Shown here: positions 3,052 through 8,958 of the stretch, piece by piece
Layout: every line of letters starts with the position of its first letter
How positions within the stretch are numbered: position 1 is the stretch's first letter
Origin: Cruorifilaria tuberocauda
Lineage: Eukaryota > Nematoda > Chromadorea > Rhabditida > Onchocercidae
Assembly (NCBI GenBank): GCA_013365365.1
Contig: JABVXU010000295.1
Location: forward strand, 1 to 64,000
DNA length: 64,000 nt
Direction of reading: 5' to 3'
Translations under genes and position numbers: made by a program
Notes under the pieces: generated by a model
Databases searched by the model: none
Seen by the model: the letters and a program-made list of their open reading frames with translations, nothing else
What the model was told of the DNA's origin: nothing

Positions 3052-6000
3052 ATGACATCAATTTTCACTCATTTTCTATCATTTCATATTGATCCGAGAC
3101 GATTACAAAAATTCCATGAACAGGTAAGAGATGAAAGTAAATTTTGGATGATTAAATTAATTGTGCAGAATCTGAGCGAAGAAAATCTCACTCAGTTATC
3201 ACTTTTGCTATCACTTTATCACTTTATTTCGTTCGTTTTATCAGCTCACTGATAAAACTGATAAACTGATAAACTGATAAAATATATATAATTCATGGAG
3301 CTTCTGAAATTTCTTTGAATTATTCGTTCGCAAAGTTCTTCAAATGATTTCACTGATGTTGATAAGCTATCAAATTTATTTATGAATTTTAAAATTAAGG
3401 TGGAAGAGTTAAGTAATCGGAAAGAATCACAGAAAAATGATAGCTCATTTGATGAAAATCATTTTCTAAAACATTGCGCTGATTTATGGAAACAATTGGA
3501 TAATTACAAACGGAAGATAGAAGGAATGAAAAATACCGGCGATCAGTCGAGTATCAAAGAAAATGTACTTGAAGATTTAAAAACAATGGCTGTAAGTTAA
3601 ACATGTATTAAATTCATAATGAACCAATTAGTCTTATGTTAATTAATTTGAGTTAATTAATTCGTTAAAGAATTACCTAACATGCAACGTTAAATGGAAT
3701 TAAGCAAAGTTTATATCACAAAAAATATCAAAAAAAAATAAACTGAACTAAGATAAACATTTAAACCTAATCGTACACATTTTAGATTATTGAATTCCCT
3801 AACGATCAATTTAGGATAAAAAAAAAATCAATAATGAATAGAATATATTACAGGATAAGTTATCAAATTTGATGAGTTCAAATAAAACTGCAACAGAGAA
3901 TGATTCTGTTAGAATGTCTCCAACTGAAAATATAAGGTAAAAATTTCATAATTTCACAGAATGCTATTTGAAAAAAAAACTATGTTAAAAAATTGAATTT
4001 GAAATTTTATAGAGAAGAAAAGATTCCAATGGAAGAAACGAATAATTTAAAAGAAGTGGATTCAGTAAAAATGAAAGATTCATCATCATCGTCATCATCA
4101 TCATCATCATCATCAGATCCAGATTATGATTCCGATCGTTCGATAGTTGAGGAACGAAATAGAATAGAAAAAATGAATTTAAAGTTAGACTTGTTTTTAA
4201 TTATTGTGACATTTATAATGATAGAGAAATTTGATAAGAGAAAAGAAGTAAGTTCCAATATTCCTTACAACTTACTACTAAGTCATCAGTAGTAAGTAAG
4301 TTGTAGAGAGTGTTGAAAATAAAGTTTTATTTCTATATTTTTCAAAATTGTCAGTATTATTTGGGATTGTTGACAATATGTGGAATATAAACTTGAAATA
4401 GTTATGGGAAGTATTTGAAGATTAATTCGGCTAATTTCTTCCTGTAATTAAGACTGTTGAAGTGGCTTGATTTTAAGTAGCACTACGGATTACTTAATAG
4501 TATTATCATGTCTAAAGAAGTTACTGAAGTAATTTTAAGAAAATTTTGCTAATTCTTTCGGTGGATCATCACTGTATTTCAAAGTTTACTATTAGAATGG
4601 ATAAACTTTTTAATTCAATAATTTCACAATTCTGATTTTAATTTTTTAGGGAAGAATTGAAAGATGCAGGAAGCACAGTAAACCGGAATAATCAATTCAT
4701 TGCCATAGCTAATTTCGAAGCACAAGCAAAAAATGATTTAACTTTGAAGGAAAATGATTTAGTGCGAATTATTGCTACTCGGTTGGTTTCAAAATTTTTT
4801 TCAAATTTGTCATTTTTATTCTTTCTCAAAATGATCATAATTGCTTGAGCAATTATTAATTTAGACAAGATGGTTGGTGGTTAGCAGAGAATGTAAACGG
4901 TGATCGTGGATTTATTCCGAAAACATTTCTGAGAGTTTGCGAAGAATGTGAAGAAGTAAGAGCAAAAGAGTCAAATATACCTTTGTCAGTGTCACAGCAG
5001 ACTGTTCCCACAAAAGTAAGGCAAGCTGAAAACTTCCGAATAATCAAAAATAATGAGATTGTTGAAAAATCAAAAGCTTCAGAAGAAAATGAGCAGCATG
5101 CAAATGTTAGTGGTGCAAGTACGTTTACAGAAACTTCAAATATTGCACAAGTTATCGAAACTAAAATTCTTGAAGAATCTGCCTCTGGCTCTGATAATAG
5201 CAAAATTTCGGGACAATATTTGAAGTTACCGGAGGCGAAAATTGCAAAAACTACCCTATCGGTAAATATTTTTTTCATTTTTTTAACTTATCAAACAAAT
5301 ATACTTTCATTAAATTATTTTATTTGAAGTTACCGGAGGCGAAAATCGCAAAAACTACCCTATCGGTAAACATTTTTCCCATTTTTTTAACTTATCAAAC
5401 AAATATAATTTCATTAAATTATTTCATGTTTATTTATCAATTCATAAATTATTTCCAGCGATCGCTCATTCAATCTGCAATTATACCAAATACATTTGAA
5501 AGAGATAATAATTACAGTAAGTTACTTAACAAATCTCAATTTCATTATGAATATTAAAATATTACTTACTTCATAATTTTAAATTTTATTGATAATGCAT
5601 GTATAAAATGATATACTCACACATCTTTTTCGAGTAAAAATCTAAAAAATATTTGAAACAAAGTCGGTATTTTGCTATAACTTTGTTTAAATGAAGTAAA
5701 TTATATTCCAATTGCAATTTGATAATATTTTTTTTCAGGTAATCATTTAACATATGAATGTTATTTGGCACCACGCCTCTGTAAATCAAATTATGCATTT
5801 CATGATATTTACTGGAATTATGAGGATAATAGAGTAAATTTTCTCGTATCCATTCTATTCATTTCTTTCTTTTCAATTATTTTTTGCTGGTAGAAGAATT
5901 TGTATAACTTCTATTTACAGTTACGAAAACGACGAGTTCGAGTAAGTAAAATGATCAAAGTAATTCGTTTGGATAAAGTACGATTGGATGGAATTGATGT

Positions 6001-8958
6001 TCATTGTCGATTGGTACGAGCGTATTTATCCGATGAAAAGAGTACGGAGGAAAAATATCAAATTGTAATCTTTCACAAATTTTTTCCTCACATCTCTCTA
6101 TCATTGTTATATAAAAATTAATTATTGATTGATTGAATTTAAAAAAGTTAAATAATTGAGCTAATAACTGTGAATCAGATAAAAATATTTGCCATATGAA
6201 TAATTTGTAATATCATTTTTAGAAATTAATAAATAATTTACAGGTGAGTAATGTTTATACAATCAAGGCATGCTTACGTACACGTGACCCACAAACGTGG
6301 ACTTTCTCTACATCGGTAAATGCATTACTTAAATTTTATCGGTTTGAAATTTCTTGTAATAAATATTGCTGTTAGTACGATGAAAATTATTAATTAGCAA
6401 GAAATGGTACTTAAGTTTGAAAAAAAGGTTGTAATTATTAACTGCTATAGTTAATTGGTTTCTTTAGATGATTTTTATGCTGCGACTGATTAGATATGAT
6501 TATGAAATTTTGACGAGAATCATGCTTACATAATTACGTACTTAAATTACTTACTAACTTACATACTTACTTAAATACATATTTAACTTAATAATCTTCA
6601 TGATATCATTCATATACTTTCTAATTAATTAATATTTTCTGGTGTTAAATTATCAATATTATAAAAATTTTTAAGAAAGATATACAGAAAGTACCACTTA
6701 ATTATCCATCGTTCATCGTACGTTCAAATTACAAGCAGAAAAGTGTAATGTTATGCCTGGAAGCTATTATCGTATTTAGCGATCATGTAAGTAATTAACT
6801 CTTAATTTAACTCTAAATTCTTAATTTTTCAGTATGAGAGAATAGAAAATGAAAACTACAAAAATTAACTTCATTTAATTGTTTATTTTTGATTTTTTAA
6901 AATTAAATTCATCCATACCTGACCGTATGAAATATACGTGATAATTGATCACTAGCAAACAGATTTTTAAGTAAGAAATAGAAAGATGATACTGTTGGTA
7001 ATTTGAAAGCTAACAATTATATACTGTAATTACAGGAAGGTGAAATGTCACAACAATCACTTGGCTGTGTTACTTTACCGATTATTGATGAAAATGGACA
7101 TTGTTGTATTCAAAACAAGTATTTTTTTTTGAGATTAATTAAATTGAACTCAAATATTTTATTTGAATTGAAATTTATTCGTTGATTTGCTAGCAGACGA
7201 ATAATTTGTCAGAAATTTGCTGATAAAAATTCAAATTTTGCAAGTAGTTGAGTTATAATTTCCAAAAAAAAAAAATTAATGAAACTTTAATTATTTTGAA
7301 TAAATAAAGTCCTCATCTTAATTAATTTTTCAAAAAATTTTCAGAAATTATTCCACAAATCTATTTACGCGCAATTCTCTTAACAAAAAAGGTACCAAAA
7401 TTTATGAAACAGATTATTCTCTTAACAGTAAAGATACCAAAAGTTATGAGACAGAGTATTTCCTTAACAGAAAAGGTACCAAAAGTTATGAAACGGAGTA
7501 TTTCCTTAGCAGAAAAGGTACCAAAAGTTATGAGACAGAGTATTTCCTTAGCAGAAAAGGTACCAAAAGTTATGAGACAGAGTATTTCCTTAACAGAAAA
7601 GGTACCAAAAGTTATGAAACAGAGTATTTTCTTAGCAGAAAAGGTACCAAAAGTTATGAAACAGAATATTTCTTTAGCAGAAAAGGTACCAAAAGTTATG
7701 AAACAAATGCATTTCCTTAACAGAAAAGGTACCAAAAGTTATGAAACAGCTATAGAACTTATTAAAACTACTGAAAGAATATCCTGGCAATTGTTTATAT
7801 GCTAGGGAATTTCCTAATGATACATGATGATATCCACTATAATATAACCTTGATCAAGCGTTAAGTTAACAGTAATGCTACGAAGTAAGATTTTAATAAT
7901 AAAATAAGCAAATGAAAATAACTCATATTGTTAATTTATTTCAAATAAGTTAAATTAATAAGAAATGAAATCTAAAATTTGAAAATAATGACTTTTCGAA
8001 ATTTAATTCTTTAACATTGAATTAAGAAAGTAAGTTTTGAATTTAAATGCACTGTTGAAGCTAAAGGAATTTAAATTATAGATGTAATCCCTGTAAATAC
8101 TCAAATTCAAATAACTTTTCGAGTATCGGATATTCCAAATGATATGGTTCATCAAGTTGAGTAAGTACATTACCGTTGGATTTATTCTATTTGAATTCCT
8201 AAAATAAATCTTGTTACTTAATTAAAAAAACTTAATTAAGAAATTTCAGAATAATCAATTAGTTAATTTATTCCTTTGCGTTAATTTCAGTTCATTGCCA
8301 GACATTTTCCTATGTCATGCATTGTTTCTACCGATGTTTTTCTATTATCGACGTTTGTTAGGTCAATTTTTGACAAAAGATTCCGATAATTGCAATAGTG
8401 CAGGTAATTTAATTATTATTTCCGAAAGTTTATTTTTTTTAATTTGAAAATAAACGCTTTAAAAAAGGCATTTAATTTGTTCGAAATGTTTCAGCACTTA
8501 AAGCTGAACCATTCCTTGCTACATTTCCGGCTATTGCTGATCAACCTGATATTATGGAAATGCTATGGCAACTTTGGAAATTTCATGAAAAAAATCTAAC
8601 AAATAAAAAGGTAATGAAAATTTTCGCATTTTCGATTTGTTCATTAATTAAACTTGTCATTTTGAAAAATTAGGAAAAAAAAATCTTTTAATTTTAGATT
8701 TCTGAAATTGAGGAAGCCGAACGATTCCGTTCATTCTTCCTAGCAACCGGATTTATTCTTCATCAAACCGTTCCAATGATGGAATTCAACTGGGCTGATC
8801 CTCGTTGCTTTGCCGATCGACAAATAAAACTTACTCATTTCCGGGAGCAATATTTACATCATTTTGATGCTATCAAATATCTTAGCAGACAACGTTGTCA
8901 TCCAATTAATGTATACAGTTATGCGGTTGATATTATTGGACCTCATGCAATCAGTTGA
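3052..8958 (+). CDS. nph-1: Nephrocystin-1 (NPHP1), 17 exons
   Basis: Ciliary transition-zone scaffold; in worms expected in ciliated sensory neurons. Exons: 3052-3123, about 3367-3591, 3854-3936, 4013-4183, 4650-4781, 4865-5261, 5459-5516, 5739-5833, 5921-6064, 6244-6315, 6676-6786, 7036-7118, 7345-7391, 8082-8160, 8291-8403, 8495-8610, 8698-8958; about 752 residues (human about 730). Domain order fits the family: N-terminal coiled coil (LWKQLDNYKRKIEGMK), acidic/Ser-rich linker with 12 Ser in a row (TCA repeat near 4080-4116), SH3 domain at about residues 199-252 (FIAIANFEAQ, DGWWLAENVNGDRGFIPKTF), then a nephrocystin homology region (DPQTWTFSTS, FLATFPAIADQPDIMEML). All phases close except the start of exon 2, where the AAG acceptor at 3366 is a phase-based guess. 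Exons 6 and 13 end in tandem duplications, listed separately. Confidence 0.93.
5217..5424 (+). repeat. 104-bp tandem duplication across nph-1 exon 6 donor
   Basis: Two near-identical copies, 5217-5320 and 5321-5424. Each contains the last ~45 coding bases of exon 6 (LKLPEAKIAKTTLS), the donor (ATCG/GTAAAT or GTAAAC) and ~60 bases of intron. Only the first donor keeps frame with exon 7: reading past it meets a stop at 5325-5327, and 104 is not a multiple of three. The second copy is therefore best read as an intronic exon-end relic with a decoy donor. Confidence 0.92.
7378..7745 (+). repeat. 42-bp minisatellite (9 copies) at nph-1 exon 13 donor
   Basis: The unit is anchored on GGTACC at 7391, 7433 (variant GATACC), 7475, 7517, 7559, 7601, 7643, 7685 and 7728. 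Spacing is 42 bp except the last step, 43 bp. The first copy is the real exon 13/intron border (AAAAAAG/GTACCA). Reading on in the exon frame, every unit is open and gives 14 residues of the type GTKSYETEYFLSRK, until a stop after copy 8. Both strands are open across the array because of the repeat's composition, so a minus-strand protein there is not supported. Confidence 0.93.

What the first reader, a model, noticed from the sequence alone, without database searches (positions are those of the whole stretch)
7345..7745. Minisatellite that multiplies an in-frame splice donor in nph-1
The 42-bp unit contains the exon 13/intron 13 border itself, so the donor AAAAG/GTACCA recurs at 7391, 7475, 7517, 7559, 7601, 7643 and 7685 (the 7433 copy has lost GT), and once more, frame-shifted by one base, at 7728. 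The unit is 14 codons, the phase stays 1, and no stop occurs before copy 8. Use of any of these donors would therefore give a nephrocystin-1 with 0 to 7 extra copies of a 14-residue polar insert (GTKSYETEYFLSRK type), in a region that in human NPHP1 is a loop. This could be a length-variable protein segment generated by donor choice or by allelic repeat number.
Basis: partly seen in the sequence, partly recalled or inferred. Interest (0 to 1): 0.75.

Follow-up and report, generated by a model that had tools for sequence, protein, structure and literature searches.

The report
Repeat array copying a splice donor
In a filarial worm's nephrocystin-1 gene a 42-base repeat has copied the end of one exon together with its splice signal about nine times; relatives suggest that the first copy is the real border, so the array is most likely intron sequence that could, at most, occasionally lengthen one loop of the protein.

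Summary
The array is real: 42 bp x 8.8 copies at 7379-7749, straddling the exon 13/intron 13 border of a filarial nph-1 gene (17 exons, 741 aa). The listed donors are exact. Corrections: copied donors add 0 or 2-7 units, never 1. Copy 2 has a new in-frame GT at 7427, and copies 2-8 a further in-frame GT, so at least 15 GTs are in frame. None of the 23 (of 28) homologues that span the junction carries the repeat; the aligned stretch is 63-72 residues in 22, and 67 in the window spliced 7391-8082. That makes copy 1 the likely border and the array intronic. An open frame is unremarkable: 42-bp arrays at the gene's other borders would be open in 469 of 645 placements. Evidence on coding is weak and mixed: exon-like G+C, a codon score reached by only 26 of 346 intron windows but below 21 of 22 exon stretches, and third-position bias with p 0.05-0.12. 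AAG|GTACCA scores below 18 of 19 other donors, with average U1 pairing. The insertion point is a low-confidence loop of a predicted C2 domain. Best reading: an ordinary border-straddling minisatellite with latent donors. RNA would decide.

The parts
3052..8958 (+). nph-1 (nephrocystin-1) gene, 17 coding exons, 741 aa; SH3 domain plus C-terminal C2-like domain
   Evidence: phases consistent, one stop at the end; homologues, some named 'Nephrocystin-1-like' by their sources; best solved-structure match Nephrocystin 1 SH3 (1s1n)
7036..7118 (+). exon 12
   Evidence: orthologue alignment
7345..7391 (+). exon 13 up to its conserved (copy 1) donor AAG|GTACCA
   Evidence: NYSTNLFTRNSLNKK|DVIPVN aligns without gap to the Elaeophora, Acanthocheilonema, Brugia (2) and Dirofilaria proteins
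7379..7749 (+). 42-bp minisatellite, 8.8 copies; last spacing 43
7428..7433 (+). GTAAAG made by a private A-to-T in copy 2; in-frame donor candidate ACA|GTAAAG (cut after 7427), best-scoring in-frame stop-free GT of the array by matrix
7434..7435 (+). copy 2 donor lost (GT to AT)
7475..7687 (+). six further in-frame AAAAG|GTACCA donors (cuts after 7475, 7517, 7559, 7601, 7643, 7685)
7718..7720 (+). TAA that closes the exon frame; the 7728 donor or intron retention gives a stop after 661 aa
8082..8160 (+). exon 14 (acceptor score 7.9, left-one-out)

Best explanation
A 42-bp segment made of the last 13-17 bases of exon 13 and the first bases of intron 13 was tandemly duplicated in this filarial lineage by ordinary repeat slippage or unequal exchange (inferred). 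The working border is still copy 1: exon 13 ends at 7391 and joins 8082, giving the conserved 741-aa protein (inferred from orthologues). The other copies lie at the start of intron 13 (690 nt, the longest intron of the gene model). They are latent donors. Because the unit happens to be 14 codons and open, mis-splicing to them would add 12-101 residues to a loop of the C2-like domain instead of breaking the frame, which would make the expansion easier to tolerate; use of 7728 or intron retention would give a premature stop.
For: Array and border coordinates. Of 28 retrieved homologues 23 span the junction and none carries the repeat; the aligned stretch has 63-72 residues in 22 and 89, with unrelated letters, in one (Plectus); the window spliced 7391-8082 has 67, as do the five filarial proteins of Elaeophora, Acanthocheilonema, two Brugia and Dirofilaria. 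A search with the long form found no relative carrying the insert (8 hits; only the 7995 candidates sharing most words were scored). A random 42-bp unit placed in this gene spans a donor in 11% and any border in 22% of positions, so straddling is not surprising. Hypothetical 42-bp arrays at the 15 other borders are open in the exon frame in 469 of 645 placements (11 of 15 borders mostly open, 4 mostly closed; placements at one border are not independent). Only 9 of 126 single changes of the unit make a stop, so an unbroken frame over seven copies carries little weight.
Against: The copy 1 donor is weak by matrix (-2.15; 19 other donors -2.56 to 10.42), although its U1 pairing energy (-5.6) is average. 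The array is exon-like in G+C (31.6% against 22.4% in the other introns and 34.1% in exons; 0 of 271 overlapping intron windows reach it) and the unit's codon score is reached by only 26 of 346 intron windows. Among copies 3-7, 4 of 5 variable sites are synonymous third positions (p 0.045; 0.12 over copies 1-7). No variable site falls in the stretch around the donor in copies 3-7 (p 0.01 for that stretch, 0.12 for any such run).
Confidence: 0.66

Rival explanations
1. Donor choice makes a length-variable protein: the identical donors compete, and messages carry 0 or 2-7 units (28-98 residues) in the C2 loop.
For: Seven identical in-frame donors before any stop; loop position; no variable site in the stretch around the donor among copies 3-7 (p 0.01 for that stretch, 0.12 for any run of that length); AG|GT arrays are spliced stochastically in human UBC (PMC10809524, abstract and passages read).
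Against: No spanning homologue carries the repeat; weak donor by matrix; the open frame is at chance level; codon score of the array in this frame (0.19 per codon) is lower than in the other open frame (0.29) and than in 21 of 22 real exon stretches, which were also the training set.
Confidence: 0.15
2. The border has moved to the new donor ACA|GTAAAG at 7427 in copy 2, so this species has a fixed 12-residue extension and the rest of the array is intron.
For: 7427 is the best in-frame stop-free donor of the array by matrix (4.97 against -2.15). The two private changes of copy 2 make this GT and destroy the copied GT six bases downstream. The isoform of 753 aa is in frame.
Against: U1 pairing is weaker (-2.8 against -5.6). 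Conserved length in relatives fits 7391. The matrix rests on 19 introns.
Confidence: 0.12
3. The whole array to 7685 is exon: a coding minisatellite whose allele length varies.
For: Exon-like G+C, a codon score reached by only 26 of 346 intron windows, and third-position bias; the only indel lies beyond the last in-frame copied donor; the A. viteae orthologue carries an unrelated coding repeat in its linker.
Against: It would insert 98 residues into a C2-like domain whose length here is 63-72 in 22 of 23 relatives; the internal donors would have to be ignored.
Confidence: 0.04
4. Units are spliced out of the array itself, each AAAAG|GT serving as donor and acceptor, as in polyubiquitin.
For: AGGT in 8 of 9 units and a unit divisible by three.
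Against: As acceptors the eight sites score 0.99 (copy 1) to -5.66; 18 of 20 native acceptors score 2.67 or more, though two score -2.13 and -6.34. Introns of 42 nt would be shorter than any in this gene model (shortest 76).
Confidence: 0.03

Closest known systems
Internal tandem repeats at exon-intron boundaries of human duplicated genes (PMC2812944; passages read)
   Same: Tandem repeat across an exon-intron border that can alter the splicing pattern
   Different: Those were drawn from paralogues differing in repeat number, with transcript evidence analysed; here neither is available
Dual-specific AG|GT splice sites in tandem arrays: UBC and VCX3A (PMC10809524; abstract and passages read)
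   Same: AG|GT in nearly every unit, unit a multiple of three, in-frame products of different length possible
   Different: There the same site serves as 5' and 3' site and introns are multiples of the unit; here the array lies at one border with a separate acceptor at 8082, and the array AGs score poorly as acceptors
[quoted passage not shown] abstract read)
   Same: Tandem duplication across an exon/intron boundary copies existing splice signals
   Different: A new intron was detected there; here many copies and no new intron shown

Membership tests
Minisatellite at an exon-intron border | tandem units of roughly 10-100 bp, many copies (recalled definition) | tested here: met
   42 bp x 8.8, score 593
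Minisatellite at an exon-intron border | array contains the functional exon/intron border | tested here: met
   copy 1 contains 7391, the border supported by orthologue proteins; not confirmed by RNA
Minisatellite at an exon-intron border | copy number varies between alleles or species | not testable with these tools
   one match in the own assembly; no nematode DNA collection at hand
Dual-specific (AGGT) splice-site tandem array, UBC type | AGGT in each unit | tested here: met
   8 of 9 units
Dual-specific (AGGT) splice-site tandem array, UBC type | same site usable as 3' splice site | tested here: inconclusive
   by matrix only: scores 0.99 to -5.66 for 8 sites, against 20 native acceptors of which 18 are at 2.67 or above and two below zero
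Dual-specific (AGGT) splice-site tandem array, UBC type | isoforms with different unit numbers observed | not testable with these tools
   no RNA data
Coding tandem repeat under frame selection | synonymous excess among copies | tested here: inconclusive
   4 of 5 third positions in copies 3-7, p 0.045; 6 of 11 in copies 1-7, p 0.12
NPHP1 orthologue | SH3 domain most like nephrocystin-1 and conserved C-terminal part | tested here: met
   C2-like fold: PI3K alpha C2 domain 2enq (E 2.9e-4, TM 0.57 by target) and Aida C-terminal domain 2qz5 (E 2.1e-3, 0.65) among the 50 rows shown

The most novel reading that the evidence does not exclude
A ciliary scaffold gene has acquired a donor ladder: an array of identical weak 5' splice sites, each one in-frame unit apart, that spreads messages over a series of loop lengths in the C2-like domain, so that protein length is set by donor choice and by repeat number.
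Probability: 0.14. Interest if true: 0.6.

Novelty: new member of a known kind. Interest (0 to 1): 0.3.

Why it matters
If several donors were used, this would be a compact natural test of how the spliceosome chooses among identical 5' splice sites that differ only in position, and of how a repeat can lengthen a conserved domain without breaking the frame. As things stand it is mainly a caution for gene prediction: an annotator could place exon 13's end at any of at least 15 in-frame GTs.

Tried and rejected
Frame openness as evidence of coding: rejected, because 42-bp arrays at this gene's other borders would be open in 469 of 645 placements and a second frame of the array is open too. Codon-usage score: undecided. 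The array scores 0.19 per codon in the exon frame, below the other open frame (0.29) and below 21 of the 22 exon stretches (which trained the score), but the consensus unit (0.14) is reached by only 26 of 346 intron windows, best of three frames. Intra-array splicing: poor acceptors by matrix. Dispersed satellite: only one match in the own assembly. The first structure job (9 sequences) was too poor to use (mean pLDDT 42); the second (23 sequences) has mean 62.6, with 12 of 18 ten-residue blocks from 281 to 460 at 82 or more and the block 431-440, at the junction, lowest at 48. Species: not identified; assembly size 71.7 Mb is not in the 22-genome table of PMC12693587 (found; passages, section 8). 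Paper searches for a described donor-multiplying minisatellite or border duplication gave the related cases cited; searches on identical competing donors and on nph-1 repeats gave no paper; one search listed 8 of 13 papers, none opened. My first gene model (737 aa) used the exon 11 acceptor at 6688; orthologues favour 6676, which gives 741 aa. In one search the printed column 'extra aa' is one too high; the lengths are right. One search lists GTs scoring above -2 plus the named ones, so 'at least 15' in-frame GTs may miss very weak ones.

Full report
Observation. The array is as described: Tandem Repeats Finder reports 42 bp x 8.8 copies at 7379-7749, and AAAAG|GTACCA recurs at the listed places, with GT changed to AT at 7433 and a 43-base last step to 7728. 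The exon frame is open to a TAA at 7718-7720. A DNA search of the held assembly found it once.

Gene. Seventeen exons from 3052 to 8958 join in phase to a 741-residue protein. It is nephrocystin-1: some relatives carry that name from their sources, and the best of 258 solved-structure matches of the family profile (60 shown) is the SH3 domain of Nephrocystin 1, 1s1n. The C-terminal half folds, in a prediction for the Brugia pahangi orthologue, into a C2-like sandwich (mean pLDDT 62.6 overall; 12 of 18 ten-residue blocks from 281 to 460 at 82 or more). Solved folds matched include the C2 domain of PI3-kinase alpha and the C-terminal domain of Aida. The exon 13/14 junction is at residues 436/437, beside the stretch 432-436 that is under pLDDT 50; a second such stretch in this part is 355-364. 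So a loop is supported for the nematode protein by prediction; low confidence is not proof of flexibility, and human NPHP1 was not examined.

Which border is real. Of 28 homologues retrieved (every named one a nematode; P0024 has no name), 23 span the junction. None carries the repeat; the aligned stretch is 63-72 residues in 22 and 89 in Plectus, against 67 in the window spliced 7391-8082. Two species give two proteins each (Toxocara canis, Nippostrongylus), one Toxocara model (P0018) has a different exon here, and P0028 diverges just after the stretch. The five not counted are P0009 (its model has exon 13 and then skips on to later sequence), P0011 (does not reach it), and P0007, P0008 and P0015, whose models lack the residues of exons 13 and 14 together. 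These are mostly automatic models, so they show what the conserved protein looks like, not splicing in this species. A search with the 98-residue insert in the query found no carrier (8 hits; only the 7995 candidates sharing most words were scored).

Is the frame special? Forty-two is divisible by three and seven copies are open. But the gene's other borders would give an open 42-bp array in 469 of 645 placements (11 of 15 borders mostly open, 4 mostly closed), two of three frames of the array are open, and only 9 of 126 single changes would make a stop. Third-position bias is 4 of 5 in copies 3-7 (p 0.045) and 6 of 11 in copies 1-7 (p 0.12). Against a plain intron, the array's G+C is 31.6% (introns 22.4%, exons 34.1%), partly because every unit repeats a piece of exon, and the unit's codon score is reached by only 26 of 346 intron windows; on the other side, the array scores below 21 of 22 exon stretches and below its own second open frame. 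These lines are weak and point both ways.

Donor strength. With a matrix from 19 other donors (15 from this gene, 4 from the neighbouring aquaporin-like gene, placed by eye against P0005), AAG|GTACCA scores -2.15; one native donor is lower, and none of the 19 has C at +4 or +5. Its computed pairing to the U1 5' end (recalled sequence) is -5.6, about the native median. Two kinds of in-frame alternative score higher: ACA|GTAAAG at 7427 (4.97; U1 pairing -2.8), created by a private change in copy 2, and AAA|GTTATGA (2.21; U1 pairing -1.6) in copies 2-8.

Verdict. An ordinary kind of event, a minisatellite seeded across a splice border, has produced an attractive arrangement. A random 42-bp unit in this gene would include a donor 11% of the time. 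The conserved product needs copy 1 and 8082. Use of other donors is neither shown nor excluded. Related arrangements with transcript evidence are published (PMC2812944, passages; PMC10809524, abstract and passages; PMC4974935, abstract), so this is a new member of a known kind.

Noticed in passing
window 5217-5424: A 104-bp tandem duplication (99 of 104 identical) straddles the exon 6/intron 6 donor of the same gene: donors TCG|GTAAAT after 5261 and TCG|GTAAAC after 5365. Use of the second would give a stop after 370 residues.
   Followed up: partly
window 7345-8160: Exons 13 and 14 together are 126 nt and can be skipped in frame; the gene models of Loa loa, Cercopithifilaria johnstoni and Ancylostoma ceylanicum lack the residues of both, either a prediction fault or a real isoform.
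   Followed up: partly
window 6676 and 6688: Two in-frame acceptors 12 nt apart for exon 11; orthologue proteins favour the upstream one, which encodes KDIQK.
   Followed up: partly
window 7421-7462 (copy 2): The two private changes of copy 2 make a GT at 7428 and destroy the copied GT at 7434, six bases apart and in frame; chance or a shifted donor.
   Followed up: partly
protein P0002 (Acanthocheilonema viteae): The orthologue has its own coding tandem repeat (ITGALARTSY type) in the linker after the SH3 domain.
   Followed up: no
window, about 1-1605: An aquaporin-like gene lies just upstream on the same strand; two Dirofilaria immitis records fuse it with nephrocystin-1 (P0005, P0009), perhaps a gene-model fusion.
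   Followed up: no
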